From Girardinichthys multiradiatus (lineage: Eukaryota > Chordata > Actinopteri > Cyprinodontiformes > Goodeidae): a stretch of DNA of 64,000 bases. This document shows positions 5,488-61,289 of this stretch, in pieces. The stretch's first letter is position 1; each line of letters opens with the position of its first letter. Location of the stretch: positions 1,364,001-1,428,000 of the forward strand of contig NC_061806.1 in NCBI RefSeq assembly GCF_021462225.1, in the 5' to 3' direction. The position numbers and the translations under genes are program-made. Under the pieces are notes generated by a model. That model ran no database searches. It had not been told where the DNA came from and saw nothing but the letters and a program-made list of their open reading frames with translations.

Positions 5488-5498
5488 GTGCATAACTG

Positions 5499-11836: not shown

Positions 11837-11842
11837 TTTAAA

Positions 11843-16183: not shown

Positions 16184-16260
16184 TAAATTTCTCAATAGCA
16201 GTGTTTACCCTAACTATCATTGTTTGTGTTGTAGTAATAGCATTGTGGTATCTGTTGTAG
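16174..16260 (+). CDS. Small hydrophobic reading frame between pol and env
   Basis: ATG overlaps the stop of the integrase frame (CATGACTAA). It encodes 28 residues: MTKINFS, then a fully hydrophobic run [18 protein letters not shown], then a stop. It could be a single-pass membrane peptide, a remnant of an envelope signal sequence, or chance. Its position, where retroviral env starts often overlap pol, favours the signal-sequence reading. Confidence 0.35.
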
Positions 16261-16299
16261 CATTGTAGCTCTTCATCTGACCTTCAGAGGTAGTCCGGC

Positions 16300-17464: not shown

Positions 17465-17589
17465 GGAGGTCCTCTGAGTGTAACTTTTTATGCATTGCAA
17501 TGATTTCATGACTGAAAATCTGAAAAGAAGTAGTCACTGAATGATGTTTAAAATTGATATAATGCTAAACTGAATAAACAGGTGGGAAA

Positions 17590-17974
17590 TGTTAGATAAA
17601 TGTACATACATTATTCAGTTTTCATTCTACATTGCTCATTTACTATCTAGATGTGCTGTTTATATTACTGATTGAGAATGGTTGTTATCTCCTTATATGC
17701 ATAGAGGAATATGATGTTGCAACATGAGCACAGGATGTGAGAACAGTCTGTTTTCACATAAAGATAAACTCCCTCAGCAGTTGAAATCTCATGTAACTAG
17801 GGCGTTCCTTTTCTAATAAAAGCATGAAGAGCGGAGACTGTCTTCAGAGTGTGTTTGGAGGATTGTAACTGAGACAGTCTCCGGGACACTCTCCTTGCAA
17901 GTTAAAACAAACTAACTTCTCTGTGTCTTTCTTTGTGCAGATGTTGTAATGAGTGTTGGGGTTTAAACCTAACA
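17590..17974 (+). repeat. ERV1 3' LTR
   Basis: It has the same 385 bp as the 5' LTR, from TGTTAGATAAATG to CCTAACA, preceded by a purine-rich AGGTGGGAAA. It is followed by the duplicated CATTT. Confidence 0.95.
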
Positions 17975-24735: not shown

Positions 24736-24741
24736 CTATTA

Positions 24742-26344
24742 CAGGTCCTTCTCAAAATATTAGCATATTGTGATAAAGTTCATTATTTTCCATAATGTCA
24801 TGATGAAAATTTAACATTCATATATTTTAGATTCATTGCACACTAACTGAAATATTTCAGGTCTTTTATTGTCTTAATACGGATGATTTTGGCATACAGC
24901 TCATGAAAACCCAAAATTCCTATCTCACTAAATTAGCATATCATTAAAAGGGTCTCTAAACGAGCTATGAACCTAATCATCTGAATCAACGAGTTAACTC
25001 TAAACACCTGCAATAGATTCCTGAGGCCTTTAAAACTCCCAGCCTGGTTCATCACTCAAAACCCCAATCATGGGTAAGACTGCCGACCTGACTGCTGTCC
25101 AGAAGGCCACTATTGACACCCTCAAGCAAGAGGGTAAGACACAGAAAGACATTTCTGAACGAATAGGCTGTTCCCAGAGTGCTGTATCAAGGCACCTCAG
25201 TGGGAAGTCTGTGGGAAGGAAAAAGTGTGGCAGAAAACGCTGCACAACGAGAAGAGGTGACCGGACCCTGAGGAAGATTGTGGAGAAGGGCCGATTCCAG
25301 ACCTTGGGGGACCTGCGGAAGCAGTGGACTGAGTCTGGAGTAGAAACATCCAGAGCCACCGTGCACAGGCGTGTGCAGGAAATGGGCTACAGGTGCCGCA
25401 TTCCCCAGGTCAAGCCACTTTTGAACCAGAAACAGCGGCAGAAGCACCTGACCTGGGCTACAGAGAAGCAGCACTGGACTGTTGCTCAGTGGTCCAAAGT
25501 ACTTTTTTCGGACGAAAGCAAATTCTGCATGTCATTCGGAAATCAAGGTGCCAGAGTCTGGAGGAAGACAGGGGAGAAGGAAATGCCAAAATGCCAGAAG
25601 TCCAGTGTCAAGTACCCACAGTCAGTGATGGTCTGGGGTGCTGTGTCAGCTTCTGGTGTTGGTCCACTGTGTTTTATCAAGGGCAGGGTCAATGCAGCTA
25701 GCTATCAGGAGATTTTGGAGCACTTCATGCTTCCATCTGCTGAAAAGCTTTATGGAGATGAAGATTTCATTTTTCAGCACGACCTGGCACCTTGCTCACA
25801 GTGCCAAAACCACTAGTAAATGGTTTACTGACCATGGTATCACTGTGCTCAATTGGCCTGCCTGACCTGAACCCCATAGAGAATCTGTGGGATATTGTGA
25901 AGAGAACGTTGAGAGACTCAAGACCCAACACTCTGGATGAGCTAAAGGCCGCTATCGAAGCATCCTGGGCCTCCATAAGACCTCAGCAGTGCCACAGGCT
26001 GATTGCCTCCATGCCACGCCGCATTGAAGCAGTCATTTCTGCCAAAGGATTCCTGACCAAGTATTGAGTGCATAACTGTACATGATTATTTGAAGGTCGA
26101 CGTTTTTTGTATTAAAAACACTTTTCTTTTATTGGTCGGATGAAATATGCTAATTTTGTGAGATAGGAATTTTGGGTTTTCATGAGCTGTATGCCAAAAT
26201 CATCCGTATTAAGACCATAAAAGACCTGAAATATTTCAGTTAGTGTGCAATGAATCTAAAATATATGAATGTTAAATTTTCATCATGACATTATGGAAAA
26301 TAATGAACTTTATCACAATATGCTAATATTTTGAGAAGGACCTG
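24742..26344 (+). mobile_element. Tc1/mariner DNA transposon, copy B
   Basis: It has the same ends and inner arms as copy A (CAGGTCCTTCTC and GAGAAGGACCTG), flanked by TA at 24,740-24,741 and 26,345-26,346. It lacks the LINE tail that interrupts copy A and is nearly identical elsewhere. Confidence 0.95.
25070..26067 (+). pseudogene. Tc1-like transposase, copy B (frameshifted)
   Basis: It is the same protein as in copy A up to FQHDLAP. An extra T (CACCTTGCTCAC against CACCTGCTCAC) shifts the frame at about 25,794. An 8-bp loss (GCCTGCCTGACC against GCCTGCCAACTCTCCTGACC) at about 25,860 brings the downstream part to a different frame, so the final Glu of the DD34E triad is not joined to the rest. 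The remaining differences are substitutions such as KH for KR. The protein is inactive in this copy. Confidence 0.93.
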
Positions 26345-30630: not shown

Positions 30631-32070
30631 CAGAATCAGAATCAGAATCAGAATCAGAAAAGCTTTATTGCCAAGTACGTTTTTGGACATACAAGGAATT
30701 TGTTTTGGCGTAGTCGGTGCAATACAATACAAATGAAACAGTATAAACATATCTACAATATAATATAAATATAAGTGCACAGTTTTAAGTGAGTGAGAGT
30801 AAATGTAGAGCAGTATAAGATGCAAGAGCAATACAACAGTGCAGGTGATCATTGTGCAAGTAAAGCAGTGCAAGTAAAGCAGGAGTCCAAGCTGAGCGTT
30901 AATGTAACGCATAGAGTTACAGTTTACAGGTGTCCTGTCAGCAAAAAAAGGGGGGGTGTGGGGGAAAGGGAGAGTGTCAGGGTGGTTTCCGGGCTTTGTT
31001 AACCAGGCTGGTGGCAGATGGGAAAAAACTGTTCTTGTGGCGTGAGGTTTTGGTCTGGATGGACCGCAGCCTCCTGCCAGAGGGGAGAGTCTCAAAGAGT
31101 CTGTGACCGGGGTGGGAGGGATCAGCCAGAATCTTCCCTGCCCGCTTCAGGGTCCTGGAGGTGTACAGTTCCTGGAGCGACAGTAGACTGCAGCCAATCA
31201 CCTTCTCAGCAGACCGAATGACACGCTGCAGCCTGCCCTTATCCTTGGCTGTAGCAGCGGCGTACCAGATGGTGATGGAGGAGGTGAGGATGGACTCAAT
31301 GATGGCTGTGTAGAAGTGCACCATCATAGTCTTTGGCAGGTTGAATTTCTTCAGCTGCCGCAGGAAGAACATCCTCTGCTGGGCTTTCTTGATGAGGGAG
31401 CTGATGTTTGGCTCCCACTTGAGATCCTGGGAGATGATGGTTCCCAGGAAGCGGAAAGATTCCACAGTGTCAATTGTGGAGTCACAGAGGGTGATGGGGG
31501 CAGGTGGGGCTGGGTTCTGCCTGAAGTTCACAACCATCTCCACTGTCTTTAGAGCGTTGAGCTCAAGGTTGTTCTGGCTGCACCAGTCCAACAGATGGTC
31601 CACCTCCCATCTGTACGCAGACTCATCACCATCAGAGATGAGTCCGATCAGGGTGGTGTCGTCCGCAAACTTCAGAAGCTTGACAGACTGGTGACTGGAG
31701 GTGCAGCTGTTGGTGTACAGGGAGAAGAGCAGAGGAGAGAGAACACAGCCTTGGGGGGAACCGGTGCTGATGGTCAGGGAGTCAGAGACGTGCTTCCCCA
31801 GCCTCACGCGCTGCTTCCTGTCAGACAGGAAGTCAGTGATCCACCTGCAGGTGGAGTCGGGCACACTCAGCTGGGAGAGCTTCTCCTGTAGCAGAACTGG
31901 GACGATGGTGTTGAAGGCAGAGCTGAAATCCACAAACAGGATCCTGGCATAGGTTCCTGTGGAGTCCAGGTGCCGGAGGATGAAGTGAAGGGCTAGGTTG
32001 ACTGCATCATCTACAGACCTGTTGGCTCTGTAGGCAAACTGCAGGGGGTCAAGGAGGGGGTCGGTGATGT
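30631..32070 (-). mobile_element. LINE fragment copy 1 (L2/Rex-like RT 3' half)
   Basis: It lies in minus orientation with the 3' tail (TTCTGA)n at 30,631. It starts at the codons for [21 protein letters not shown] inside the RT domain. A 318-codon open frame (31,933-30,977) contains [70 protein letters not shown] and the C-terminal [18 protein letters not shown]. The catalytic FADD is intact. The 5' half (endonuclease) is missing. Confidence 0.88.
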
Positions 32071-38253: not shown

Positions 38254-38409
38254 TGACCAATCCCTGTTTTTGAAAGAACTGATGTGGCTTGTTCTCTTCC
38301 ACCACTAGTATTTGTTAAGCAAAGATGACTGCAACAGTTAGCCAATACAGTAAGTGTTAATGTCTTAGTGTATTATTTTTTTCAAGTTGACATTCATTCA
38401 CATGTTCAT

Positions 38410-39829
38410 CAGAATCAGAATCAGAATCAGAAAAGCTTTATTGCCAAGTACGTTTTTGGACATACAAGGAATTTGTTTTGGCGTAGTCGGTGCAATACAA
38501 TACAAATTAAACAGTACAAACATATCTACAATATAATATAAATATATGTGCACAGTTTTAAGTGAGTGAGAGTAAATATAGAGCAGTATAAGATGCAAGA
38601 GCAATACAACAGTACAGGTGATCATTGTGCAAGTAAAGCAGGAGTCCAAGCTGAGCGTTAATGTAACTCATAGAGTTACAGGTTACAGGTGTCCTGTCAG
38701 CAAAAAAAGGGGGGGTATGGGGGAAAGGGAGAGTGTCAGTGTGGTTTCCGGGCTTTGTTAACCAGGCTGGTGGCAGATGGGAAAAAACTGTTCTTGTGGC
38801 GTGAGGTTTTGGTCCGGATGGACCGCAGCCTCCTGCCAGAGGGGAGAGTCTCAAAGAGTCTGTGACCGGGGTGGGAGGGATCAGCCAGAATCTTCCCTGC
38901 CCGCTTCAGGGTCCTGGAGGTGTACAGTTCCTGGAGCGACAGTAGACTGCAGCCAATCACCTTCTCAGCAGACCGAATGACACGCTGCAGCCTGCCCTTA
39001 TCCTTGGCTGTAGCAGCGGCGTACCAGATGGTGATGGAGGAGGTGAGGATGGATTCAATGATGGCTGTGTAGAAGTGCACCATCATAGTCTTTGGCAGGT
39101 TGAATTTCTTCAGCTGCCGCAGGAAGAACATCCTCTGCTGGGCTTTCTTGATGAGGGAGCTGATGTTTGGCTCCCACTTGAGATCCTGGGAGAGGATGGT
39201 TCCCAGGAAGCGGAAAGATTCCACAGTGTCAATTGTGGAGTCACAGAGGGTGATGGGGGCAGGTGGGGCTGGGTTCTGCCTGAAGTTCACAACCATCTCC
39301 ACTGTCTTTAGAGCATTGAGCTCAAGGCTGTTCTGGCTGCACCAGTCCAACAGATGGTCCACCTCTCATCTGTACGCAGACTTGTCACCATCAGAGATGA
39401 GTCCGATCAGGGTGGTGTCGTCCGCAAACTTCAGAAGCTTGACAGACTGGTGACTGGAGGTGCAGCTGTTGGTGTACAGGGAGAAGAGCAGAGGAGAGAG
39501 AACACAGCCTTGGGGGGAACCGGTGCTGATGGTCAGGGAGTCAGAGACGTGCTTCCCCAGCCTCACGCGCTGCTTCCTGTCAGACAGGAAGTCAGTGATC
39601 CACCTGCAGGTGGAGTCGGGCACACTCAGCTGGGAGAGCTTCTCCTGTAGCAGAACTGGGACGATGGTGTTGAAGGCAGAGCTGAAATCCACAAACAGGA
39701 TCCTGGCATAGGTTCCTGTGGAGTCCAGGTGCCGGAGGATGAAGTGAAGGGCTAGGTTGACTGCATCATCTACAGACCTGTTGGCTCTGTAGGCAAACTG
39801 CAGGGGGTCAAGGAGGGGGTCGGTGATGT
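38410..39829 (-). mobile_element. LINE fragment copy 2 (same breakpoints as copy 1)
   Basis: It is nearly identical to copy 1 and in the same orientation. It starts at the same RT codon and ends in the same (TTCTGA)n tail with one unit fewer. One change (CCTCTCATC for CCTCCCATC) turns a Trp codon into a stop, splitting the frame at 39,362-39,366. A roughly 16-bp internal duplication present in copy 1 is absent. Confidence 0.88.
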
Positions 39830-48800: not shown

Positions 48801-49100
48801 GCTGCTGGTTGTGAACGAGACACTGAGGGACACTAAACGTCCCACGGAGAATATGAGCTGGAGAGCAGCTAACAGTGGGAGCCAATGAATTCTCCAGATG
48901 AATTTCTAGAATCTGGAGACTAACGAGAACAACAGAATCATTTACCATGTTTCTACACCATCACCATCACCATACTGGGTGAAATGTGCTAACCATGAGT
49001 GCCTCATGTACAGCAGTAATCCCTGGGTTCCTCTGTTCTGATCACTAAAACCCTTAAACTACATGTTTCTCATCTTGTTCCAGTATTCTCTCCTGCAGAG
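45900..49100. other. Long unassigned stretch
   Basis: No mobile-element motif or gene was recognised. The 48,100-48,900 part is GC-richer and has overlapping open frames on both strands, but none shows a known domain and codon use is not persuasive. It could hold conserved non-coding sequence. Confidence 0.3.
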
Positions 49101-49117
49101 AGAGCTCCTGTCTGCCC

Positions 49118-49270
49118 GTATGCAGCGCCTTCAGAAACTATTCATACTGCTTGAACTTTCACATACCGCCATGTTTGTAGCAAAGTTATAATGCCTCAGA
49201 AACGGTGGATCATCATTATAGCAAATGATGAGCTACTTAATTAGATTTATCTTTTAAAAAATCACATCAG
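49118..49270 (+). repeat. Tc1-type terminal relic
   Basis: CGTATGCAGCGCCTTCAGAAACTATTCATACTGC matches the left terminal repeat of a common fish/salmonid Tc1 subfamily, followed by degenerate subterminal sequence. No coding part remains. Confidence 0.5.
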
Positions 49271-49556
49271 TCTCATAAATCTTGCAAAAATGTATTCTAA
49301 ACAAGTAAATCTTCTTCGTCTGGGTCCCTAATGGCATACTTCTATTTAATGTTAGAAGCTCAATATTAGCACTTCAAAATTAACACTTTAACTGAAAACT
49401 GAGTGATTATAAACCAAATGTCTTCTTTGATGGTGATGTGTTTCTCAGACAGTCAGTCAGTCCATCATTCTCTGACTGAATCAGCACTATGTAGCCCCAT
49501 CATTGTGTCATCAGATGCTGTCTACGCAGGAATGTTCTGTCGCGTCTCATTAGCTC

Positions 49557-49927
49557 TGTTAGGGTTTGAAAACTTTTGTATTGTTTATCACTCATGTCTG
49601 CTCTAAGTGCTTTTCCCTCCTACATGCCACAGAAAGGGATATGGGGAGATGAGTGAGTTATGCTTTTATCAGTAACATCTAGGGGCTGTTCGTACCAGGT
49701 CCCCACTCCCTCTTTGTTTAAAATCAAGACACATGAACCCTAACCTTTCTGACCCCCCCCCCTCACACACACACCCTGAATGTTTGTTGAACTGTGTGTG
49801 AACCAGCATGTATAAGAGAGAGGGGTGCCAACACTTTGTAGTCTGCACTGCAAAGTGAGCTACCCTTGCTGCAAGTAAATCTGACTGTATCGTTCTTGCC
49901 TCTGAGTTGACTAATTAATACCTAACA
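49557..49927 (+). repeat. ERV3 5' LTR
   Basis: It runs TGTTAG to CCTAACA. It differs from the 3' LTR by small indels (GTATAAGAG against GTATAAATAAAGAG; different C and CA runs) and by an inversion of 48 bp at 49,559-49,606. The amount of difference marks an old insertion. Confidence 0.92.
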
Positions 49928-49933
49928 TTAACT

Positions 49934-49950
49934 TGGTCCTTTGAGCGGAT
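49934..49950 (+). promoter_or_regulatory. ERV3 primer binding site (tRNA-Tyr type, decayed)
   Basis: TGGTCCTTTGAGCGGAT differs by one substitution and one deletion from the perfect tRNA-Tyr complement in ERV2. Confidence 0.7.
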
Positions 49951-50084
49951 AGATTTCAATAACCTTATTTTCTTTGCTTTAACAGTGACTCTCAGAGGAT
50001 CCAGAGAGTGACCAAGAGGTCAACTCTGAGGTGAGACAGTTTTAAAATAGAATAAGCGCTAAGATAAGAAAAAGTCGTTGGTAG

Positions 50085-50249
50085 TGTCTCGCCGTAAGGA
50101 GACAGCAATTGGATAGGTTTTATTTTGCCGGAAGGAAATAGCGATAAATTTAGGTAGGATCTCGCCACAAGGAGATCAGAAACGACTAGGTAGTTCCGCC
50201 GTGAGGGAACTGGATAATTTGGTTGGTAGCATTTCGCCGGAAGGAAATG
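50085..50249 (+). ncRNA. Array of five hairpins with conserved octaloop (ERV3 leader)
   Basis: Five 20-base hairpins start at 50,085, 50,121, 50,158, 50,192 and 50,230 (spacing 36, 37, 34, 38). Each has a 6-bp stem and an 8-base loop GCC(G/A)(T/G/C)(A/G)AG. The stems differ completely but pair in each case: TGTCTC/GAGACA, TATTTT/GAAATA (one G-T), GATCTC/GAGATC, AGTTCC/GGAACT, CATTTC/GAAATG. Loop conservation with stem covariation is strong evidence for RNA structure. Its place between primer site and gag suggests a role in genome packaging or dimerisation, which is inference. Confidence 0.8.
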
Positions 50250-50496
50250 AAATTAAATGTTGCATAATAAGGGAGCTCATAAACTAAGCTGGGTCAACCA
50301 TACATATTGCTGAAGGGACATAAATATGTCAAAATACTAACCCCTCTTTCTGCCTCAGTGATTCCTGGAAGCTGTGAGGAGTGTTACCTGTGTGACGTTT
50401 TCCTATGGCTGAATAAACCTTTTAAACTTTCAGTACTGTCTGGCTGAATCTTGGGTCCGCCTTATTCTGATTCATAGCAGAAAAATCAGGCCAAAA

Positions 50497-51427
50497 ATGG
50501 ACCCATCACCAGCACAACAGTGGCGTACCCACGTTGATGAGACCCTTTCCTGCTTGGGTTCCGGCGTGGAGGAAATAATTTCCACATTACGTTCTGGCAA
50601 TCTTGTCTTTGAGCTGCCACCGTCACAAAGAAACCACGCCCAAGTAACACGGACAACAGCAGAGGTAAGGCAGCCACGCCTCTCTCCGCCTGAGATGTTC
50701 AGGGGAGACTCAGACCAATGTCGAGCTTTTCTAACTCAGTGGGAAATTCATTTTGAGCTTCAGCCGTCATTTATTCCCACTGAACGTTCCAAGGTGGCGT
50801 TTGCCGGCAGGAAAGGCAAAACAGTGGGGAACTGCTGAATGGCATAACAGGTCTGCATCTTGTGATCTTTCTGAAACTTTTTCCAAGGAACTCATTCGAG
50901 TTTTTGACCCGGTCATTCCAAGTCGTGAGGCCGCAAGAGGATTATTGTCCCTCAAACAGGGTGATCAACCTGTTTCGACCTATATAATTGACTTTCATTT
51001 GTTGGCTGCAGAGAGCCCTTGGAATGAGGCAGCACAGATGGATGCATTCATGAAAGGATTAAACGAAGACATCAAGGATGAGCTAGCGACCCGTAACTAT
51101 CCTTTTTCCCTGAAACAACTCGAGGATTTGGCTGCTCGCATTGATATTCGGCTGGCAGAGAGAAGGAAGGAGAAGCACCATGAGAAGGGTCGCTCATCAT
51201 TAACTCAGTCTTCTGCACACCGGTATGAGAGAAGGAGTCGGTCACCTCTCACAGAGGAAAATGATAATTGTGAGCCCATGCAATTGAGCAGAACGAAGAT
51301 TACCCCTGAGGAGAAAGATCATCGGAGAAGATTCAAGCTCTGTTTTTATTGTGGAGAGAAGGGACATTTAGCACTCAGGTGTCCACTAAAAGGACAGGCT
51401 CAGCAGAGGAAGGGAGGTCTCTACTGA
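50497..51427 (+). pseudogene. gag: Chromovirus gag (one frameshift)
   Basis: The start MDPSPAQQW leads into a capsid-like domain (PPEMFRGDSDQCRAFLTQWE, FELQPSFIPTERSKVAF), the region related to vertebrate domesticated Gag genes such as the RTL/PEG10 group. Near 50,800 an indel shifts the frame. The second frame continues with DPVIPSREAARGLLSLKQGD, AQMDAFMKGLNEDIKDELA and ends with the CCHC knuckle CFYCGEKGHLALRC. The stop at 51,427 lies just after the knuckle. Confidence 0.85.
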
Positions 51428-51429
51428 GC

Positions 51430-52177
51430 CAAAGTCAACTAACTGCCTCCTCCTTCTTGTTTCCTGCTCGTTTTCAAACCTCTTCCATGTCTCTCCAGGG
51501 GGCCGTGTTTATTGATTCAGGAGCAGATACTGAATTCATGGACGAAACATTTGCAAATAAGAACGGCATAAAACTTATTCCATCAGCTGACACAAGAAAC
51601 GTGCTAGCTTTGGATGGTCACAGCATGAACAATTCACACCTCAGGACGGAGGGGATTACCTTAACAGTTGGAGGTAATCATCAAGAAAAAGTAACTTTCA
51701 TGATCATTAATTCACCTGAACTTCCTGTAGTCCTAGGGGCCTCCTGGTTGCAGAAACACAACCCTCACATTGACTGGAAGAAAAAAGAAGTTCTGGGTTG
51801 GTCTGAGTCATGTTCCGCTGACTGTCATTTGTCTGCTGCTACGGAGGTCAGTGTGGAGAATGAGGTTGAGGAGACACATCCGGATTTATCCAAGGTACTG
51901 CAAGAATACCATGATTTAAAGGAAGTATTTAATAAAATCAAGGCCACAGCTCTGCCACCCCACAGACCATATGATTGTGCTATTGATTTGCTTCCTGGCA
52001 CATCAACCCCTAAAGGCAGAACCTATTCATTGTCTGGTCCAGAGCACAGGGCCATGAAGAATTATGTTGATGAGGCATTAAGGGCAGGGCACATTCAACC
52101 TTCTTCGTCTCCTGCAGGTGCTGGTTTCTTTTTTGTTGGGAAGAAGGATGGCTCGTTGAGACCATGCATTGATTATT
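51430..52177 (+). pseudogene. pol: Chromovirus protease and RT start
   Basis: The aspartyl protease site is FIDSGADTEFMD (about 51,515), with VVLGASWLQKHNPHIDW at its C-terminal end. After a linker, RT begins: PPHRPYDCAIDLLPGT, MKNYVDEALRAGHIQPSSSP, FFVGKKDGSLRPCIDY. The frame is cut after CIDY by the small retroelement; RT resumes at 53,445. The frame overlaps the end of gag, as usual. Confidence 0.85.
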
Positions 52178-53444
52178 CAATTCAATTCAATTCAAAGATA
52201 CTTTATTGATCCCCGAGGGGAAATTAGAATTCCAGTACAACCCATCCAAACATACATCATGACACAAGACAAGGGAGACGGGTCACCGAGGCTTTGCTGC
52301 CCACTCACAGGCGCTGCCCTTGTTAGATGAGAAAAGAGGCCACATTAGGTAAGTAGAGGGAAAAAATCATATTTCACACTTTATCCTTAGCAGGATACAG
52401 TTTGAGATTGCAAAAAACCTCAGCACAAAGAAGCAACAAGTTGACAAAACAACATCATGCCGGGAACAGTGAAGGTGGTGTGAGGGGGTGCATATGTTTA
52501 TCTTGAGCATGTGTGTGTGTGCAAGTGAGTGTGTGCAAGTAAGTCCATGAAGCACTGTCACAGAGGCCATTGTCCTTGATGGTTCGTTGGAATGTTCATC
52601 AACCGGTTCTGAGCAGGTCCACAGGTGTCCTCAGGGAAGGGAGGGGGCAGAGGGAGCAAAGCGTCATGTTTACTTAACTTCCAGGAGACGTTGAAGATAG
52701 CCAGCCATCAAGGCAGGGGAGCCAGATTGAGAAAAACAATAATTATTTGGGTTAGGCTGACTCATAATTTTCCGTCAGCCTTGAGAGTCTCGCTGGTGCT
52801 TCTCAAAGGCGAATCCGAATAGCCAAATTCCTGGTCTTTCTGCCAGATCCAAGCGAACAACTTTCTCCAAGATTTATACCATTTCACCCCTGAGTCCAGG
52901 AACCGCAACCTGCCTGCGATCCTGTATAAGGATCACATCCAGTCTCCGATTCAGCTCACGTAACATCTCAGTCTGAGTGTTGATTGCTCTGAAGATCCCA
53001 TCACACATGCCAGGCAGCCTCACAATGGCCAGAACAGCTGCTGACATTCTTCGAATTTCTCGATATGCCAGGTAACCGCTGACTCCAAAAAGCAGAAATC
53101 TTGATATCAAACATCCAATTATATACACATCTTCCACATCCTCGACTGACATTATCGACAAACACACAATCCTCCACTTCTGCCAGGAGTCCATCGTGTA
53201 TCCAGAGAAAAATGTCCCGTCCGGGCAAGCGGGCTCTCCCGACCCCTGTCTTCTCGTCGAGAAAATTTGATCAATTGCATTGAGAGACCAGCTGACCAAA
53301 TCCATATTTTGGAAGAATTTGGAAGATGTGCAAAAAGAGGCTCCAAAAAGAGACAAGACACAGAGCTGAAGCAGGGCAGATATGGGAGGGGTCCCGGAGA
53401 CAGAGAAAAAGCGTCCACCTCCACCGAGAGCAGGAAAAGAAAGA
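52178..53444 (-). mobile_element. 1.27-kb retroelement encoding a small membrane protein
   Basis: The insert splits the RT codons of the chromovirus between CIDY and RGLNEITVKNRYPL. Read on the minus strand it has a roughly 140-base 5' leader, one 143-codon frame, a roughly 690-base 3' region, AATAAA (in GGGATCAATAAAGTATC) and a tail of TTGAA repeats, the plan of a reverse-transcribed, LINE-mobilised RNA. It encodes no reverse transcriptase, so it would depend on another element. The TTGAATTGAA tail matches the LINE tail at 37.36 kb. Confidence 0.65.
52874..53305 (-). CDS. Putative 143-aa single-pass membrane protein of unknown family
   Basis: The best start is at 53,305 (MDLVSWSLNAIDQIF); the frame is open further upstream to 53,497, but that part lies in leader and flanking sequence. 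Residues 16-60 are polar, with CPDGTFFSGY and SWQKWRI. Residues about 61-82 form a hydrophobic span (YIIGCLISRFLLFGVSGYLA) followed by Arg-rich YREIRR. Residues 84-125 look like an amphipathic or coiled helix (RAINTQTEMLRELNRRLDVI). There is no signal peptide. No domain is recognised. It may be a captured host gene or a protein belonging to the element; the frame is intact. Confidence 0.5.
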   Translation of the reverse strand: MDLVSWSLNAIDQIFSTRRQGSGEPACPDGTFFSGYTMDSWQKWRIVCLSIMSVEDVEDVYIIGCLISRFLLFGVSGYLAYREIRRMSAAVLAIVRLPGMCDGIFRAINTQTEMLRELNRRLDVILIQDRRQVAVPGLRGEMV

Positions 53445-54060
53445 GGCCTTAATGAGATAACAGTTAAAAATAGATATCCCTTACCACTCATGAACACAGG
53501 GAGCCAAGATATTTTCTAAGCTGGATCTAAGGAATGCATATCATCTGGTCCGAATCAGAGAAGGAGATGAGTGGAAAACGGCTTTTAACACGCCTACGGG
53601 CCATTATGAATACAAGGTCATGCCATTTGGACTTACTAACGCTCCTGTAGTTTTTCATTCATTGGTTAATGACGTTCTAAGAGACATGGTGGGTCAATTC
53701 GTATTTGTTTATCTTGATGACATACTGATTTATTCTCAAGATCTGGAAACCCACAGAAAACATGTCAGAGCTGTTCTCCTGCATCTTCTCCAAAACCAGT
53801 TGTTCGTCAAGGCAGAAAAATATGAGTTTCACATCACTACCACTTCCTTTTTAGGCTTCATCATTTCCCCAGATCAAGTGCTTATCGATCCCTCCAAAGT
53901 AAAGGCTGTTTTGGAATGGCCTGTTTCAACTGATCGCAAGCAACTTCAAAGATTTCTGGGCTTCGCAAACTTCTATAGAAGGTTTATTAGAAAATACAGT
54001 CTTGCTTGCTACTCCCCTGAACACTCTTACCTCTTCCAAGACAAAATGTTTGTGGAATAA
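53445..54060 (+). pseudogene. pol: Chromovirus RT, second part
   Basis: It resumes with [17 protein letters not shown], loses a few residues and shifts frame near 53,515 before [20 protein letters not shown]. It then gives [18 protein letters not shown], catalytic [13 protein letters not shown], and [11 protein letters not shown] to [16 protein letters not shown]. Another shift follows near 54,010-54,030. Confidence 0.88.
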
Positions 54061-54781
54061 GGATGCAGAGAAGGCCTTCAATAAGTTGAAGGAGCTCTTC
54101 ACGTCAGCTCCAGTGTTACAGTCTCCTGACCCAGAGAGACAGTTTATTGTGGAGGTGGATGCCTCAAGCACTGGGGTCGGAGCCGTATTAGGCCAAAGAG
54201 GTGAGGATGATCGTGTTCACCCATGTGCCTTTTTCTCAAGGACCCTGTCTCAGGCTGAGCGGAATTACGACGTGGGAAACAGAGAGTTACTGGCCGTCAA
54301 GTTGGCATTGACAGAGTGGAGACATTGGCTGGAGAGGACTAAGGTGTGGTCTGACCATAAAAACTTGGAGTACCTGAAGTCAGCAAAACAGCTGAACCCC
54401 AGGCAGGCAAGGTGGGCTCTGTTTTTTGGTCGTTTTAATTTCTCCCTATCTTACAGGCCAGGGAGTAAAAATGGCAAACCTGATGCCCTATCCCGGATTC
54501 AAGAGCCCGCAGAATCTCAGTCTGCGGGTGAAGAGGAGTTTATCCTTCTGTGTCCCAAGTGGAAAAGGGAGGTCCAGGAAGCCATTAGAGATCTGCCTAT
54601 CCCACCATCATGTCCACCTGACCGCTGTTTTGTCCCTGAACACCTTGTGCCTAAGGTACTGGAGTCCTGTCATTGCTCTCATTTAGTTTGTCATCCAGGA
54701 ATCAGCAGAACCATTCAGACATTTCGAACTCAGTTTTGGTGGCCATCGCTGGTCAAGGATGTCAAAGACTTTTGTTTCTGA
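54010..54781 (+). pseudogene. pol: Chromovirus RNase H and integrase N-terminus
   Basis: RNase [69 protein letters not shown]. The catalytic Asp, Glu and Asp are visible in these blocks. It is followed by [14 protein letters not shown] and the integrase zinc-binding start [19 protein letters not shown]. The frame stops at 54,781, where a shift leads into the next integrase frame. Confidence 0.86.
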
Positions 54782-55940
54782 ATGCACACAATGTTGTCGA
54801 GCCAAGCCTTCTCGTCGCCCCCCTGCGGGGTTGTTGCACCCATTGCCCATTCCCCCTCGCCCATGGTCGCACATTGCGATGGATTTTGTGACAGGTCTAC
54901 CGGTTTCTAATGGTCACTCTGTACTACTGACCATAATTGACAGATTTTCTAAGATGGTTTATCTGGTGCCCTTGGAGAAGCTTCCATCTGCTAAGGAGAT
55001 GGGTGAGATATTGACCCGAGAAGTTTTCAGGCTCCATGGAATCCCTAATGACATTGTTTCCGATAGAGGACCCCAATTTGTGTCACGTTTCTGGAAGGAG
55101 TTTTGTTCTTTGTTGGGAATTTCTGTTAGTCTTTCCTCAGGGTTTCATCCTCAGTCTGATGGCCAAACCGAGAGAGCCAACCAAGAAGCTGAAACCAAAC
55201 TTCGTATATTATGTGAGTCTGACCCGACCAAGTGGCCACAAAATTTGCCCTGGGTTGAATACGCCATGAACTCTATGCAATCAAGAGCCACTGGTTTGTC
55301 TCCTTTTCATGTTGTGTTTGGTTTCCAGCCACCCATGTTTTCAGTTCAGGAGAGAGAAGCTAATGTTCCGTCCGCCCAAGCGGCTGCCCAAAGGTGCCAA
55401 AGAATATGGAGAAAGGCCAGGTCGATGATCAGAATGTCACTGGTTCAGTCAGGAACGGCCAACCGGAGACGGATCCCTGCCCCTAAATACCAGGTGGGGC
55501 AGAAAGTTTGGCTCTCCGCCAAGGACCTCCCATTAAGGGTAGAATTCCGTAAATTGGCACCCCGATTTGTTGGACCTTTCCCAATCTCCAAGATCATCCA
55601 CCCTGTCGCTGTACAACTGAGATTACCCAACTCCATGAGGATTCACCCCACGTTCCACGTTTCTCAGGTCAAGCCCTTCGTGGAGCCCCGACTTGGGCCC
55701 ACCTCCGGGCCCCCTCCACCCATCCGGGTCATTGATGGTGGTCCAGTGTTCTCGGTCCGGCGCATTCTCAGGTCCAGGCGAAGAGGACGTGGAATGCAAT
55801 ACCTGGTTGACTGGAAGGGCTATGGGCCCGAGGAACGGACTTGGATTCCTACGAGGTTCATTATTGATAAGGACCTAATTCGTAAGTTTCATCGACTCCA
55901 TCCTGATCAGCCTCGTGGTCCGTCAGGAGCCGGACCTTAG
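54759..55940 (+). pseudogene. pol: Chromovirus integrase with C-terminal chromodomain
   Basis: It begins with the last two Cys of the zinc finger ([12 protein letters not shown]). The catalytic core holds Asp 42 (MDFVTGLP), Asp 102 (VSDRGPQF) and Glu 138 (GQTERANQE), 35 residues between the last two, so the DD35E triad is complete. A GPF-type C-terminal domain follows ([17 protein letters not shown]). Residues about 331-382 form a chromodomain ([32 protein letters not shown]), which in chromoviruses directs insertion to marked chromatin. This reading frame is open, but it is separated from the rest of pol by a frameshift. Confidence 0.9.
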
Positions 55941-55951
55941 AGGGGGGGTAC

Positions 55952-56105
55952 TGTTATGATTCTGGCACGTCTGCTCTACCCTGTCTCCCTGGCTGCAATC
56001 AGCAGATTAGATGCACCTGGTGGCTGCTGCAGTGTAGTGCAATCTGTGGAATGTGTCTTGGACCTGTGTCTTCCCTGATTTATACTGACTTGTTTCTGAG
56101 GTAGG
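55952..56105 (+). repeat. Chromovirus 3' LTR, truncated
   Basis: TGTTATGATTCTGGCACGTC follows a purine tract. Sequence beyond about 56,105 does not resemble the LTR end found before gag at 50,400-50,490. Confidence 0.6.
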
Positions 56106-57090
56106 TGCATGTTAACAGTTTTGCAGTTTAAGGTACACTAAGATGGGTTTGAATGAAGAAACTGTGGGTCCGCCCATAGGCTGCCCATCAGAGGTTAGTT
56201 CTGCCTGACTCCGCCCACCTACTAGGTTGGTTCATGCCTTTGCTGTCATGGAAACGCTCAGCACCTCCCTTCCTGAGTTTTAACACTGTTTAAGAGACAA
56301 AAGAATCAAAATGCTTGTAGTGATTGTTGCCTTAAAAACATGTTTTTTGTATAATGATAAATGATGTAGCATGACATTTAGATTTATGTGTTTTACTATT
56401 AAAAGGTTTTACTATTAAAAGGTTAATGAAATAGTTTAAACTGGTTTGAAGAATTAGTTTTGCATGCAGAATCATTGGTGATTTATTAGATTGAAAGTTT
56501 TCCCTGGTGCCATTAAGCTAGCTGACAGTTCAAGATATGCCAAAAGTAAGGAATATATATTTTTGATAAAGAATCAGAGTTATGATTTCATACTTGACAG
56601 GAATTATTTATTAGATTAAATTTGTAGAGTGTATGCATCAGAATTACATTAGATTTCCATTAATCTAATACTTATCTTCATACAAGACAAATCAGGATGA
56701 TATGTGATTTATTTCTAAGTGAAATATTGATGAACTGAATAACTGAAGTTTGTGTTTTATTGTTAATGGAACTGAATTGCAGGTAAAAACATCTGGATTT
56801 TCTTTATGTTGCTTTCGTTAAATTCATAGTGACATAGTTATGTCAGAATTCATTTCTTTGGTTCTATGTAATGTGATCTTGGTTACTAGAACATTCTTGT
56901 TTAAACCTTTCGCTGGATTGTCGCATGGGTTGGACCCTGCGCCAGAAGGGGGGAATGTCAGAATAAAGTAACATGGGGATATTACCAAGATCATTTTTTT
57001 CCACATCTTTGTGTGAAGGTAGGATGTTGTTTTACTGTCAAAACCTGTCCACTGTGTTTTCTCAAGTTTCACAGATGGTGAAGGCTGCAT
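56105..57090. other. Unassigned internal sequence of ERV3 or an older insert
   Basis: It is AT-rich, with a doubled 16-mer TTTTACTATTAAAAGG at about 56,393-56,424 and GAAGGGGGGAATGTCAG at 56,945. No retroviral coding motif is recognised before the integrase end. Confidence 0.3.
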
Positions 57091-57260
57091 TACCAGTAAA
57101 CACAGGAAGTCCAGGTGCTGGAATGGCCCATATCAGATCCTACTAGACACCCAGGAAAGCTGCAGGAAAGCTCCAGCTCCTCCAGGACAAGTCATCTTCT
57201 AACTGGATCATCCACGGCCTAAAAGGTGTGAGGACAGCGGACCACCACAAGACAAAGAAC
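57090..57260 (+). pseudogene. ERV3 integrase C-terminal remnant
   Basis: The GPY domain is seen as RWNGPYQILLDT, then after a frame change NWIIHGLKGVR, which matches the WIH-HCKR end of retroviral integrase. No catalytic core is present. Confidence 0.6.
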
Positions 57261-57545
57261 TGTAAGCTGATCACTGGCGAGTGATTGAAGAGGTGGTTGA
57301 AGAACACTGTTCTTACAAGGGCACAATAATCCCTTGGGCAGTGCCACGTTATTTCAGAATCTACTTAAGGCCATCGCATTGCCTGAAAGTTAGAAATCAT
57401 AAGGTCATTTGCCTCACTGCACACACACACCACAGTGAGAGACACATAGACAACATACAGGGAAGACCTCTACACATTGCACATAACCTTTCTCTGGATG
57501 ATGGACTGGTGACGTCTGCAACAGAGAGACAGTCAAACATGCGCC

Positions 57546-57590
57546 ATGATGCTTATTCTCCTTAATTTCTTAATATTTGGTGGCTACTAG
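57546..57590 (+). CDS. Short hydrophobic frame at the ERV3 env start
   Basis: MMLILLNFLIFGGY followed by a stop lies after the integrase end, at the place where ERV1 has its 28-residue hydrophobic frame. It may be a broken envelope signal peptide. Confidence 0.3.
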   Translation: MMLILLNFLIFGGY

Positions 57591-57599
57591 GGGCTCCTT

Positions 57600-58300
57600 T
57601 GCCTCGACAGCAAGGGTCAGCCAAATTCTTTTCTCCCACTTTGACAGCGAAACTGACTCTGAGGAGGAAATCTCGGATGCTTTTATCTAACTTTCATGTT
57701 TATTGCTTGATGTCTATCATTATGGTACAAATTTGAATGAGTTCATTTCCACCGTTGTTTAGTTGGACTATGGAAGCCTAACTTCCAGCAGGTTAGAGTT
57801 CCTGTTTCTAAATATATTTCTAGAGGAGCTTCCTACGACCGCCCACCTGTACCAGACTGGTAACAGGGCAGCTTGAAGCCATGCATCAGGCCGTGCTGGA
57901 GAAGCATCTCTGGTGGAGTAGCCATGGAGAAGGGCAGGTTTCTAAAATCCAGACTCAAAAACGCAGATGTTGAACTCAAATCCCATATATGTGTGTATTT
58001 GTGTGTGAGAGAGGCAGAAGAAAAAGTTTAGTATAGGTTCAGATTTTGCACAAAGAAATATAATCAGTCAGTCAGTCAGTTGTCCACCTGCCTGTCACTT
58101 CCTTCCACAACATGAACTATACTCCTTTCTAAAACAACTTTCTTTTCGCATCTCTAATGTCCCTTTTCAATTTTACCTTCTTTTCCGACTGATCGCAATA
58201 TTTAAGACAAACGAAACTTCCTTCAGGAAAGTTTTAACTTCTTTTTTTTTTTACTTATTTACACTTAAACTTCCACGCTGTAAAAAACCAAACTTATCTT
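57600..58300. other. Unassigned ERV3 env-region sequence
   Basis: Broken frames with no clear envelope motif. It lies between the presumed env start and the antisense ERV-B fragment. Confidence 0.3.
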
Positions 58301-59291
58301 CCAAATTAAAGCACATTTAACACAATCATCCCCACTTTTTCCTTTCATTATTTTATAAATCAGAGTATGAAGAAGGAGACACCCCTGATGCCTCAAGGTT
58401 CCAGAACCATATCTTTTTTTACCCATTCAGCGGCACGTCTGCCGACTGGCTTTTCTCCTTTATGAGGTGTAGAAAATTGCTAAAAACTACCCGCAAAACC
58501 CTGTGTTCTGCTTTATCTTATTGTTACCAATAAGAACCTCCCTGTTATTCCTTTACAGGGTAACCGGGCCCTCAGCTGATGTCCTCCCTCTCGCAACTCT
58601 GGAACCTAATTAATTAGTTAGGAAATGATGGTTAATGTGTAATAAAAATAATAATATACATTATATCATACAGAGCAACTTCTCACCCAGATATATTTGA
58701 AGACAAATAGTTCGGATCCAATCGGCCAGAAGCCGCAGGCGGGCACCAGAACTCCCCTCCGTAAAATGGAAGTGGACTGAGAACAACTCTCAGGCTGGCC
58801 AGGCATCCGTGTCCCATCCTGCGGATTCCTCTGGCACGTTAGATCCTGTTCGTGACGCTAAAATTGTTGTGGAATTTTCTTATCAAAGTGGGTAGAAGTT
58901 GACTCATAACAAGAGAAAATCCGGACTTTGTCTTTTATAAGTTTTATTCAAAGGCATTCAGTGTTTGAAGACCCTGACACTGAGGTTAGTCAGTGAAATA
59001 GAGCCCTGATCAACATTTACACACAGTATTTATACCAAACATGACAGTGTTATCTCAACTTCAAAGAGTCTGTGTTTTATGACCCCAGACCCTTCTCGGG
59101 TTCAGAGGTGACAAAGTTATCTAGGAACCCATCTGTCCTTCCCGAGATATCACCCTAAAGCATGAGTTTTAACCATTAAACTTCTGATAATGGCTTTTAC
59201 AGCTTCCTCCTCTAACACAGATGCTCAGAGGAGTGAGGTAACCCAAAGGTCATACACTTTGGAACACTTAATTAAAATAATTTCCATCACA
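58300..59291 (-). mobile_element. ERV-B fragment in antisense: LTR and leader
   Basis: The LTR runs on the minus strand from 59,291 (TGTGATGG) to 58,865 (CCACAACA), 427 bp. A primer site follows at 58,843-58,860 (TAGCGTCACGAACAGGAT on the minus strand), which, apart from one base, is complementary to the 3' end of a tRNA-Ser (CGA type). Leader sequence continues leftward to an unclear border. It belongs to a different family from ERV1-3. Confidence 0.6.
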
Positions 59292-60119
59292 GTTTGTTGT
59301 TTGATTCCACGTGCTATTAATGATCAACCATTTTTAGTACCTGTTCCTATTGATACTACTTTCTTCCGAGATAGGAAAACATAACCAGCTGGTGGAGGTT
59401 ATTTTTCCTTGGGTGAGGAATTATATTGTAAGGCAAAGCAGAAATGTTAGTAGATTTTCTAGTGAGACTAATTTAATATGTGCTACTACAGGAATTCTTT
59501 ATAGATTTTGGGGTAATAGGAATCAATAAGATTTCCAGATATAGGTACAGATATTTGTATTGTTCAGGAGGAAAACACACCTTATTTTCTTGGAAAGACA
59601 GAAGGTTGCAAAACTATTATATCTGTTTCATGTGCTTTAATCAACAGACATAAATTTGAGTCATGTCCTATCAGAACTGCTGCTTATACTATTTGAGGAT
59701 CTTTGGTCCCAGATCCCTTTGTGTTAACTTTTAATCTTACACCCGTACCAAATGGAAGTAAGTTGTATGGCCAGGCAGGTAAATTAACCAGGGTTCTTGT
59801 TACTTTTCCTAGTAGAGATGGGTACTCATGTCCTAAGAACATGGTTTGGATGTGTGGAAATAGATAATATCTGTATCTGCCTGCTAATTGGTCTGGAGTA
59901 TGTTATCTAGCTCATTTACTACGTACAGTCACAACTTATAATTCAATCAGCCCATTATTAGAGAGGAAGGGTTCACTGTTCTGACCAAGGAGCAGCAAGC
60001 TCTTAGAACATGAGTTTGAAAAGTAGAATGGCTTTGGATTATCTGTTAGCTGAGAGGGTTGATGGTTTTGAAGAATTTTCCTTTTAATTGTGATTACCTT
60101 GTAATCAGAAGAAAGGAGT
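59292..60119 (+). pseudogene. env: ERV-B envelope remnant
   Basis: Decayed envelope gene on the plus strand. Near 59,820-59,930 the surface-subunit end is seen as CPKNMVWMCGN and LPANWSGVCYLAHLL, a landmark block of gamma-like envelopes. Near 60,010-60,060 SRMALDYLLAERV matches the start of the immunosuppressive-like region of the TM subunit. Stops and shifts are many. It ends at a purine tract AGAAGAAAGGAGT before the plus-strand LTR. Confidence 0.65.
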
Positions 60120-60404
60120 TGTAATGGAAATCCTTGTATTAAGTGCTCTAAGGAGTTCTAAAGTGTATGACCTTTAGGTTACCTCTCTTTCTTCAGAACA
60201 TCTGTGTTAGAGGAGGAAGCTGTAAAAACCAGTATCAGACGTTTAATGGTTAAAACCCATTCCTTTTGGGTGATGTCTCAGGAAAAGCAGATGGTCTGCT
60301 CATAGATAACTTTGTTACCCCTGACGGTCTAGGCCATAAAGCACAAACTCTTTTAAGTGGTGATAACACCCATATACTCTTTAAATACTGTGTGTAAATG
60401 TTGA
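60120..60404 (+). repeat. ERV-B 3' LTR, truncated, in inverted relation to 58,865-59,291
   Basis: TGTAATGGAAATCC to TGTGTAAATGTTGA is the reverse complement (diverged) of the antisense LTR. Shared blocks include AAGTGTATGACCT, AGAGGAGGAAGCTGTAAAA and GTTTAATGGTTAAAAC. It stops at 60,404 where ERV3 env sequence resumes. Confidence 0.75.
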
Positions 60405-60507
60405 CACCACACTGGACCCAAAGACAGATGATTATGATGACACAGAAAAAGTTTATTTTACCGAGCTACAAAATAAAGACCACTACTCCTATGATGACAT
60501 GTTGTAA
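60405..60507 (+). pseudogene. env: ERV3 env cytoplasmic tail
   Basis: The frame DPKTDDYDDTEKVYFTEL ends in YSYDDML and TAA. It is an acidic, Tyr-rich tail placed just before the 3' end of the provirus, comparable to the acidic tail of the ERV1 envelope. Confidence 0.5.
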
Positions 60508-60666
60508 ATGGAAATATCTTTGACGCCTGAGTGTATTCATAATTGTACTTCATAAAATGACTTTATAGCAGATAATCTGCTTACCGTCCGTGGGTTTTTC
60601 GCTCACACAGTGTTTTCTTTTACATGTATCTAATCATGACTTTCTTTGTGATAAAAAAGGAAGGAC

Positions 60667-61049
60667 TGTTAGAGCAGACATGAGCGATAAACAATACAAA
60701 AGTTTTCAAACCCTAAGTGCTTTTCCCTCCTACATGCCACAGAAGGGATATGGGGGAGATGAGTGAGTTATGCTTTTATCAGTAACATCTAGGGGCTGTT
60801 CGTACCAGGTCCCCACTCTCCCTCTTTGTTTAAAATCAAGACACATGAACCCTAACCTTTCTGACCCCACACACACACACACACACACCCTGAATGTTTG
60901 TTGAACTGTGTGTGAACCAGCATGTATAAATAAAGAGAGAGGGGTGCCAACACTTTGTAGTCTGCACTGCAAAAGTGAGCTACCCTTGCTGCAAGTAAAT
61001 CTGACTCTGTATCGTTCTTGCCTCTGAGTTGACTAATTAATACCTAACA
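60667..61049 (+). repeat. ERV3 3' LTR
   Basis: It is preceded by the purine tract AAAAAAGGAAGGAC and followed by AGCTC. It contains a (CA)n run, TATAAATAAAG and the same end as the 5' LTR. The segment 60,669-60,716 is inverted with respect to the 5' LTR. Confidence 0.92.
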
Positions 61050-61289
61050 AGCTCTATGAAAATAGATTCTACTATTTTTTTAAACCTTTTGTTGAGACCT
61101 GGAGCAGTGTTCAACTCAAGGTTTAGAGACCTCAACTACGTAGAGAATAAGACTGTAACTTCATGTATTCACTGGCATCTAAATAAACAGTTTATCATAT
61201 TTTTATTTGAGCTCAATGTGATGTCATGATGAAGGCTTTTTATTTATATGTACTAACAAATCTGGCTTTTAAGCACTATTAATGCTACA

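What the first reader, a model, noticed from the sequence alone, without database searches (positions are those of the whole stretch)
50085..50249. Five covarying hairpins with one octaloop in the ERV3 leader
Five 20-base units at about 36-base spacing share the loop GCC-R-N-R-AG, while their 6-bp stems differ and still pair. Covariation inside a single locus is hard to explain by chance or simple duplication. The place, between primer site and gag, points to a packaging or dimerisation signal with repeated loops.
Basis: seen in the sequence. Interest (0 to 1): 0.75.

Follow-up and report, generated by a model that had tools for sequence, protein, structure and literature searches.

The report
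Hairpin array in fish retrovirus leader
A fish endogenous retrovirus carries, ahead of its first gene, a row of small RNA hairpins that show the same loop on stems that keep pairing while their letters change, probably the tag by which the virus packs its own RNA.

Summary
Five hairpins (50085-50249) pair at 30 of 30 stem positions; their loop motif carries a stem nowhere else in the window. A two-core pattern had 355 matches against 10 for its control. I read 80 arrays with 367 core units, 2-8 per array, most often five. Hairpins 1, 2, 3 and 5 show double substitutions that keep a stem pair; in assigned units a T>C change at pair 2 was always met by G (25 of 25), and for hairpin 5 in 58 of 60 listed genome-wide. 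On a weakly supported tree such changes arose several times and never went the opposite way. The array lies behind a Tyr-type primer site and a likely splice donor, and 353-361 nt before gag in three relatives, the place of the murine leukaemia virus packaging signal. Two gag-less copies keep the leader to 9-23 nt before the gag start. Best reading: a multi-hairpin packaging signal; binding and packaging are inferred. Loop kissing is unlikely. New variant of a known kind.

The parts
49557..49927 (+). 5' LTR of the provirus, flanked by the 5-bp target duplication AGCTC (49552-49556 and 61050-61054)
   Evidence: 49603-49927 matches 60713-61049 at 94.7%; ends and duplication read from the sequence
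49934..49950 (+). primer binding site, tRNA-Tyr type (TGGTCCTTTGAGCGGAT here)
   Evidence: position after the LTR; found in 31 of 39 copies by the pattern used, 30 of these reading TGGTCCTTCGAG; tRNA identity recalled, not tested
50028..50036 (+). likely major splice donor GAG|GTGAGA, intron would start at 50031, 54 nt before the first hairpin
   Evidence: best donor score in 49820-50500 by a recalled matrix; a strict donor 8-mer lies within 200 nt upstream of the array in 69 of 80 arrays; use not shown
50085..50104 (+). hairpin 1, TGTCTC(GCCGTAAG)GAGACA
   Evidence: relatives show C-G to G-C at pair 3 in 4 of 67
50121..50140 (+). hairpin 2, TATTTT(GCCGGAAG)GAAATA; weak in this copy
   Evidence: relatives show T-A to C-G at pair 2 in 6 of 78
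50158..50177 (+). hairpin 3, GATCTC(GCCACAAG)GAGATC
   Evidence: relatives show T-A to C-G at pair 2 in 5 of 75
50192..50211 (+). hairpin 4, AGTTCC(GCCGTGAG)GGAACT
   Evidence: A.C mismatch at pair 5 in 16 of 58 relatives; not part of the RNAalifold consensus
50230..50249 (+). hairpin 5, CATTTC(GCCGGAAG)GAAATG
   Evidence: relatives show T-A to C-G at pair 2 in 14 of 62; genome-wide pattern, 245 matches
50070..50253 (+). whole array of about 36-nt units, each with GGTA or GGTT just before the hairpin
   Evidence: tag in 315 of 340 assigned units
49928..50341 (+). part of the ERV leader kept in this copy; at 50342 other sequence begins (a nested Ty3/gypsy element), ERV sequence probably resumes near 57039
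   Evidence: 39 of 39 copies align up to 50340/50341; in copy L255 window 57039-57099 lies 17 nt after the leader end
60667..61049 (+). 3' LTR of the same provirus, with a 48-bp inverted stretch at its start
   Evidence: ends read from the sequence

Best explanation
The array is a selected RNA element of the genomic RNA of a Tyr-primer ERV family: 2-8, usually five, short hairpins that present one core, CGCCGNAAGG, on stems whose letters are free as long as they pair, each preceded by a GGUA/GGUU tag. It most likely serves as a multivalent packaging signal. It lies behind a likely splice donor, so only unspliced RNA would carry it, and several nucleocapsid domains of Gag would bind the repeated hairpins side by side. 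Shown by sequence: position, pairing, covariation, conserved core, change of unit number, retention of the leader in gag-less copies. Inferred: transcription, donor use, Gag as the partner, packaging. Open: whether the apex is an octaloop closed by C-G or a GNAA tetraloop on CC/GG with a two-base bulge.
For: Pairing: 1,891 Watson-Crick + 60 G-U of 2,040 cells in 340 assigned units from 80 arrays. Where the 5' arm changed T>C at pair 2, the 3' arm has G in 6/6, 5/5 and 14/14 (hairpins 2, 3, 5). Genome-wide for hairpin 5, of the first 100 of 245 matches 38 are T-A, 58 C-G, 2 T-G, 2 C-A (hand count; control pattern 0). Tree without hairpins: independent pairs on supported branches 3 (hairpin 5), 2 (hairpin 3), 2 (hairpin 2), 1 (hairpin 1); the partner went the same way in 2.6, 2.0, 1.7, 0.7 on average, the other way in 0. 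Alignment of 24 of the 80 arrays: covariation score 0.109, reached by 0 of 500 shuffles; slid structures at most 0.082. Place: donor 8-mer upstream of the array in 69 of 80, gag ATG 353-361 nt after the last hairpin in 3 loci; the MLV packaging region lies between splice site and gag start (PMC7599994 section 18). Two gag-less copies (L258, L248) align with gag-bearing L306, L295 and L297 up to 9-23 nt before their gag ATG; 35 of 39 near copies share that gag-less body (counted).
Against: No binding, packaging or probing data. Single-sequence folding leaves hairpin 2 mostly unformed and, in some contexts, 1 and 5; the RNAalifold consensus has hairpins 1, 2, 3 and 5 but another fold at hairpin 4. 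Shared mismatches without compensation: hairpin 4 pair 5 A.C in 16 of 58, hairpin 5 pair 6 C.T in 13 of 62, hairpin 1 pair 6 T.T in 5 of 67. Among the 40 near copies no compensation is seen. The sign tests on the tree have too few pairs to reach 0.05 for any hairpin alone; only 10 of 76 inner branches are well supported, the result for hairpin 4 was cut from the output, and recombination between copies could move whole hairpins. In one search further pair types are not above shuffles (133 of 500), one slid structure also has 4 pairs changed on both sides, and related rows can exceed shuffles without structure. A related ERV group has no such array in 20 of 20 leaders. Only one genome could be searched.
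Confidence: 0.6

Rival explanations
1. The hairpins are an RNA export, splicing-control or translation element: a host protein binds the repeated core or the GGUA tags and keeps the RNA unspliced, exports it or starts translation.
For: Repeated identical loops fit a host RNA-binding protein; the array follows a likely donor directly, and two units contain donor-like TAG|GTAG; purine-rich AAGGA stretches in the units.
Against: The donor-like match is only in some units; the purine-rich stretches follow from the core itself; no Rfam family matches (window 49000-52000, E up to 1: none).
Confidence: 0.22
2. Dimerisation signal: loops of two RNAs kiss.
For: Retroviral leaders dimerise through hairpins of this region (PMC516450 passages; PMC7599994 section 18); N=G loops hold CCGG.
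Against: Loops are conserved but not self-complementary; N is G in only 85 of 367 units.
Confidence: 0.08
3. DNA-level array, like the protein-binding repeats in the leader of Drosophila gypsy (recalled): tandem sites for a DNA-binding protein, with no RNA role.
For: Tandem repeats in an ERV leader with a conserved core; N=G cores resemble ETS sites (recalled).
Against: Arm letters vary in a paired way, which a DNA site does not need; N varies over all four bases.
Confidence: 0.05
4. No function: inverted repeats kept paired by template switching or arm-to-arm correction during reverse transcription, and spread with the family.
For: Copying errors at hairpins can make arms complementary (general knowledge); the copies are many and related.
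Against: The loop stays while stems change; apart from two mixed cells on each side at hairpin 1 pair 3 and a few single cases, shared mismatches sit in the outer pairs; compensated variants sit between the linkers of their own unit (the assignment rule), and all 13 exact CATTCC/GGAATG hairpins have N=G, so they were not copied from hairpin 4, whose N is mostly T.
Confidence: 0.05

Closest known systems
Murine leukaemia virus core packaging signal (stem-loops SL-B, SL-C, SL-D)
   Same: Place between splice site and gag start; neighbouring hairpins, several of which are needed together for tight nucleocapsid binding (PMC7599994 section 18, read); GACG tetraloops take part in packaging in alpha- and gammaretroviruses (PMC516450 passages).
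   Different: Here 2-8 hairpins with CGCCGNAAGG; that MLV has a pair of hairpins with GACG loops is recalled; no palindromic partner hairpin identified here; binding not tested.
HIV-1 psi hairpin (GGAG tetraloop)
   Same: Short leader hairpin with a purine-rich tetraloop (PMC7599994 passages).
   Different: Single hairpin and another loop sequence.
Drosophila gypsy insulator (recalled)
   Same: Tandem repeats in the leader of an ERV-like element.
   Different: Protein-binding DNA sites; no paired variation expected.
Leader module of the sister ERV group in the same genome (window 12094-12301; L325-L344)
   Same: Tyr-type primer site in the leaders printed, donor-like sites, and a hairpin-capable module of about 100 nt present twice in 15 of 20 and once in 5 of 20 leaders.
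   Different: Other hairpin sequences; the GCCGNAAG array is in none of the 20 leaders.

Membership tests
Retroviral packaging signal (gammaretrovirus type) | lies in the leader between splice donor and gag start | tested here: met
   donor 8-mer upstream of the array in 69 of 80; gag ATG 353-361 nt downstream in 3 loci. Donor use not shown
Retroviral packaging signal (gammaretrovirus type) | conserved RNA stem-loops | tested here: met
   covariation, with the limits given under evidence against
Retroviral packaging signal (gammaretrovirus type) | GACG tetraloops | tested here: not met
   loops are GCCGNAAG
Retroviral packaging signal (gammaretrovirus type) | bound by nucleocapsid and needed for packaging | not testable with these tools
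   needs biochemistry
Retroviral dimerisation site | self-complementary loop or palindrome | tested here: not met
   loop not self-complementary; CCGG only if N=G, 85 of 367
GNRA tetraloop hairpin | GNRA closed by a Watson-Crick pair | tested here: inconclusive
   family loops read CC-GNAA-GG, but the energy model favours the octaloop over the full GNRA form in 5 of 5 window units, by 0.2 to 3.4 kcal/mol; for hairpin 2 alone the best fold keeps only CC/GG
Known RNA family (Rfam 15) | match up to E = 1 | tested here: not met
   0 matches in window 49000-52000

The most novel reading that the evidence does not exclude
A packaging signal built as a row of interchangeable hairpins whose number (2-8) changes by block duplication, so that Gag avidity can be tuned by copy number; a gag-less relative kept LTR and leader almost to the gag start and spread, carrying the array as its ticket into particles made by others.
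Probability: 0.3. Interest if true: 0.78.

Novelty: new variant of a known kind. Interest (0 to 1): 0.62.

Why it matters
Packaging signals are known in detail for a few retroviruses, mostly of mammals and birds. Here one genome holds hundreds of pattern matches (355) to a modular leader element with a variable number of units, so covariation, copy-number change and the link to gag-less amplification can be read directly. If the function holds, it shows avidity through repeated like hairpins as a packaging strategy in fish ERVs, and it gives a simple sequence handle (CGCCGNAAGG repeats) for finding such leaders elsewhere.

Tried and rejected
Viral collection: pattern scans of IMG/VR for two or three cores (capped lists; 34, 9 stretches) gave many contigs; none of the 229 loci held had two hairpins of 5 bp or more within 120 nt, and the loci added were not checked that way. 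A search for retroviral contigs with the second ERV's RT found none.

Owner of the array: I first considered that the hairpins belong to the LTR of the nested Ty3/gypsy element. Rejected: in 34 of 39 copies one match runs from within the ERV's LTR through primer site and array to 50340/50341; in three more the LTR matches separately, and in two (L252, L276) only the leader matches.

Two early notes of mine said or implied that most copies pass from 50341 into the window's 57037 stretch. This was wrong: of the 39 copies only L255 does so next to the array; in 61 of 63 loci holding the post-array stretch the following 300 nt belong to one shared sequence.

U-G intermediates: one search lists six T-G cells at hairpin 5 pair 2; the stems show five of them to be one-base shifts (GGAAAT), so I do not use them as wobble intermediates.

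Near copies: among 40 close copies I found no compensation; I went to more distant arrays for that reason. Rows set aside: 27 of 367 core units could not be assigned to units 1-5 and are left out of the pair counts; two of them, 128-129 nt upstream of the array in L293 and L315, are probably not part of it. The 40 distant arrays come from contigs C1-C7 only, because only the first 100 places are listed; I fetched 40 of the 42 new arrays counted there by hand. The pattern and the core rule fix the loop core and the G after it, and the pattern also a C before one core and a purine at one 3' position, so these are not free in that set.

Sister leaders: hairpin density in the second ERV's leader is not clearly above chance (stems of 6 bp or more: 26 of 500 simulations at least as high; 5 bp or more: 239).

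Literature: searches listed no paper that I recognised as describing such an array (open-access library only). Seen of papers: PMC7599994, passages and section 18 whole; PMC516450, PMC5086612 and PMC8672886, passages only; all others, search listing only.

Full report
What was claimed and what is there. They are there exactly. All 30 stem cells pair, one of them U-G. The five stems differ: the 5' arms depart from their majority at 9 places and the 3' arms at 8. Dealing the 3' letters anew within columns reaches 30 of 30 in 5 of 200,000 trials. The loop motif occurs 24 times on both strands of the window, and only these five have stems of 5 bp or more. In 100 Markov sequences of 64 kb, 15 of 1,060 motifs had such a stem. 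Measures that ignore the loop are less convincing: z = -2.3 for the folding energy of 50060-50270, with three of the five hairpins in the best fold; 5 hairpins with stems of 6 bp or more, reached by 4 of 500 simulated sequences, but 132 of 500 when 5 bp is enough. Hairpin 2 is weak in this copy.

What surrounds it. The provirus runs from 49557 to 61049, with LTRs 94.7% alike over the aligned part and a 5-bp target duplication AGCTC read from the sequence. A primer site of tRNA-Tyr type (identity recalled) follows the 5' LTR, then a good splice donor at 50031 (matrix recalled), then the array. A Ty3/gypsy element with a chromodomain (Pfam) lies downstream; the copies align with the window up to 50340/50341 and not beyond. 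ERV sequence probably resumes near 57039, since in the copy L255 that stretch lies 17 nt after the leader end. The array belongs to the ERV and not to the gypsy LTR: in 34 of 39 copies one match runs from within the LTR through primer site and array.

The genome. The window lies on a contig of a 1.15-Gb assembly. Two contig lengths (52,235,030 and 46,654,526) equal those listed for proteins of Girardinichthys multiradiatus, a goodeid fish, so I take that as the host. The leader query had 1,161 first-look candidates, of which 40 were scored and all 40 matched, at 89-100% (the window itself is one of them). A pattern of two cores at array spacing, with no stem letters fixed apart from those next to the cores, had 355 matches against 10 for the reversed control.

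Close copies. In the 39 fetched copies plus the window, each hairpin keeps its own stem letters; 6 of 6 pairs are intact in 34, 37, 34, 26 and 26 of 40. Stem columns vary no less than linkers (mean minority fraction 0.032 in both, 0.035 in the rest of the leader), and loops vary most (0.057); I attribute the latter to CpG decay, which I did not test. There are no compensatory changes among them. That is what dead copies of one lineage would show, and it neither supports nor refutes the structure. The commonest loop of each unit is GCCGNAAG, with N differing between units.

Distant copies. Forty further arrays (L285-L324) include ones with different stems at the corresponding hairpins. Over 80 arrays and 367 core units, 340 could be assigned to units 1-5 by their linkers: 1,891 Watson-Crick, 60 G-U and 89 mismatched cells of 2,040. 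Hairpin 1 changes C-G to G-C at pair 3 (4 of 67, and five more among unassigned units). Hairpins 2, 3 and 5 change T-A to C-G at pair 2 (6 of 78, 5 of 75, 14 of 62). Given the 5' change T>C in these units, the 3' side is G in 25 of 25. Hairpin 4 has single cases only (A-T at pair 5, G-C at pair 6, one each). On a tree from flanks only, the changes give 3, 2, 2 and 1 independent pairs on supported branches for hairpins 5, 3, 2 and 1; the partner goes the same way or does not differ, never the other way. No single hairpin has enough pairs to reach 0.05 in the sign test, the tree is weakly supported (10 starred of 76 inner branches), and the output for hairpin 4 was cut. In an alignment of 24 arrays that I chose from the 80, the covariation score exceeds 500 of 500 shuffles and all slid structures, while further pair types do not exceed shuffles (133 of 500), and one slid structure also has four pairs changed on both sides; the tool warns that related rows can exceed shuffles without structure. 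The RNAalifold consensus of the same alignment has hairpins 1, 2, 3 and 5 and a different fold at hairpin 4. Genome-wide, the hairpin 5 pattern that allows all four combinations at pair 2 has 245 matches (control 0); of the 100 listed I counted 38 T-A, 58 C-G, 2 T-G and 2 C-A.

Against this stand shared, uncompensated mismatches: A.C at hairpin 4 pair 5 (16 of 58), C.T at hairpin 5 pair 6 (13 of 62) and T.T at hairpin 1 pair 6 (5 of 67), all in the outer two pairs. A.A at hairpin 5 pair 5 (5 of 62) comes from one-base shifts. Hairpin 1 pair 3 also has two C.C and two G.G cells. Thus the inner pairs are mostly held, and the base of the stem is looser.

Anatomy of a unit. Each unit has a GGTA or GGTT tag, a stem and the core CGCCGNAAGG; the tag is present in 315 of the 340 assigned and 17 of the 27 unassigned units, and GGTAG is the majority form in units 1, 3, 4 and 5. 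N is T 145, C 103, G 85, A 34 of 367. The closing C-G next to the loop is never replaced by another Watson-Crick pair in the assigned units, though its G is part of the search core; this would suit a recognised core. The letters allow a GNAA tetraloop on a CC/GG stem with a two-base bulge; the energy model prefers the open octaloop to that form in all five window units, by 0.2 to 3.4 kcal/mol. This stays open. Units per array: five in 40 of 80, range 2-8 (arrays with decayed cores are undercounted). Two long arrays read 1-2-3-x-2-3 and one 1-2-3-x-2-3-4-5, as if a block of three had been copied (x is an unassigned unit whose stem is of the hairpin 1 kind).

Relation to gag. Five of the 40 distant arrays and one of the 39 near copies have gag-like sequence downstream in the same sense within the stretch fetched. 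In three of them the gag start codon could be placed, 353-361 nt after the last hairpin. Two gag-less copies compared (L258, L248) align with L306 up to 1204-1208 (gag ATG at 1217), with L297 up to 1192-1193 (ATG 1215) and with L295 up to 1083-1084 (ATG 1106), that is, to 9-23 nt before the gag start. 35 of 39 near copies share that body without detected gag (counted; about 1.2 kb downstream of the leader query was held, so gag further away is not excluded). So copies that lost gag kept LTR, primer site and nearly the whole leader, though a stretch between primer site and donor is shorter in the two compared. A donor 8-mer lies upstream of the array in 69 of 80.

How it most likely works. Unspliced RNA alone would carry the array; Gag, through its nucleocapsid domain, would bind several like hairpins at once; avidity gives selectivity. 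This parallels murine leukaemia virus, where the packaging region lies between splice site and gag start and tight binding needs three stem-loops together (PMC7599994 section 18), and where GACG tetraloops play a part (PMC516450 passages). It is the same place and principle with another loop and more units; membership in that family fails on the loop and is untested on binding. Gag-less copies need Gag from elsewhere, so they should keep whatever packaging needs, and they kept the leader. That fits, but leaders may also be kept for reverse transcription or for no reason.

Rivals. An export, splicing or translation element read by a host protein is the main rival. Dimerisation by loop kissing is disfavoured, since the loops are not self-complementary. 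A DNA-binding array does not need paired variation. Arm correction without selection does not explain why the loop stays while stems change.

Sister group. The second ERV of the window (11452-17974, identical LTRs) has a Tyr-type primer site too, and an RT closer to MLV-type enzymes (MMLV reverse transcriptase E 4.5e-47, best hit 1.8e-51) than to HIV's (about 1e-21) among solved structures. The 20 leaders fetched for its group lack the array but carry another hairpin-capable module of about 100 nt, twice in 15 and once in 5. Tandem duplication of leader modules may thus be a habit of these viruses; the hairpin density there is not clearly above chance.

Limits. One genome; relatives in other species could not be searched; function is inferred from place, structure and analogy. 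Literature searches covered an open-access library only.

Noticed in passing
60667-60716 against 49557-49606: About 48 bp at the start of the 3' LTR are inverted relative to the 5' LTR, between TTAG and CTAA ends. 51 of 79 fetched copies show the 5' LTR orientation, 0 the inverted one, 28 not scorable: apparently private to this copy.
   Followed up: yes
11452-17974: A young ERV (LTRs 100% identical over 385 bp) with Tyr-type primer site, gag and env reading frames, and a 102-bp leader module in tandem at 12094-12301; its gag has relatives in many fish.
   Followed up: partly
L325-L344: Leaders of 20 gag-bearing relatives of that ERV hold the hairpin-capable module GGAGGGTAGRCTCC + GGACN6GTCC, twice in 15 and once in 5, although their gags are 63-99% identical to the window's.
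   Followed up: partly
50342-56100: A Ty3/gypsy chromodomain element sits inside the ERV; LTR remnants matching each other were not found on its two sides, and its RT region is interrupted around 52210-53490. Its outer limits were not determined.
   Followed up: partly
59010-59265 and 60155-60404: Inverted pair of about 250 bp, 79% alike, inside the provirus: possibly remains of another element.
   Followed up: no
4142-5498 and 24740-26078; 30635-32070 and 38408-39829: Long repeated stretches, 97-98% alike. An ORF in the first pair looks like a DNA-transposon transposase, one in the second like a non-LTR reverse transcriptase (judged from the ORF letters, not searched).
   Followed up: no
L299, L306, L312, L295, L297, L283: Members with the array and gag-like sequence: possible kin of the helper lineage of the gag-less copies; in the three whose start codon was placed (L306, L295, L297) the frame is broken after 221-251 codons.
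   Followed up: partly
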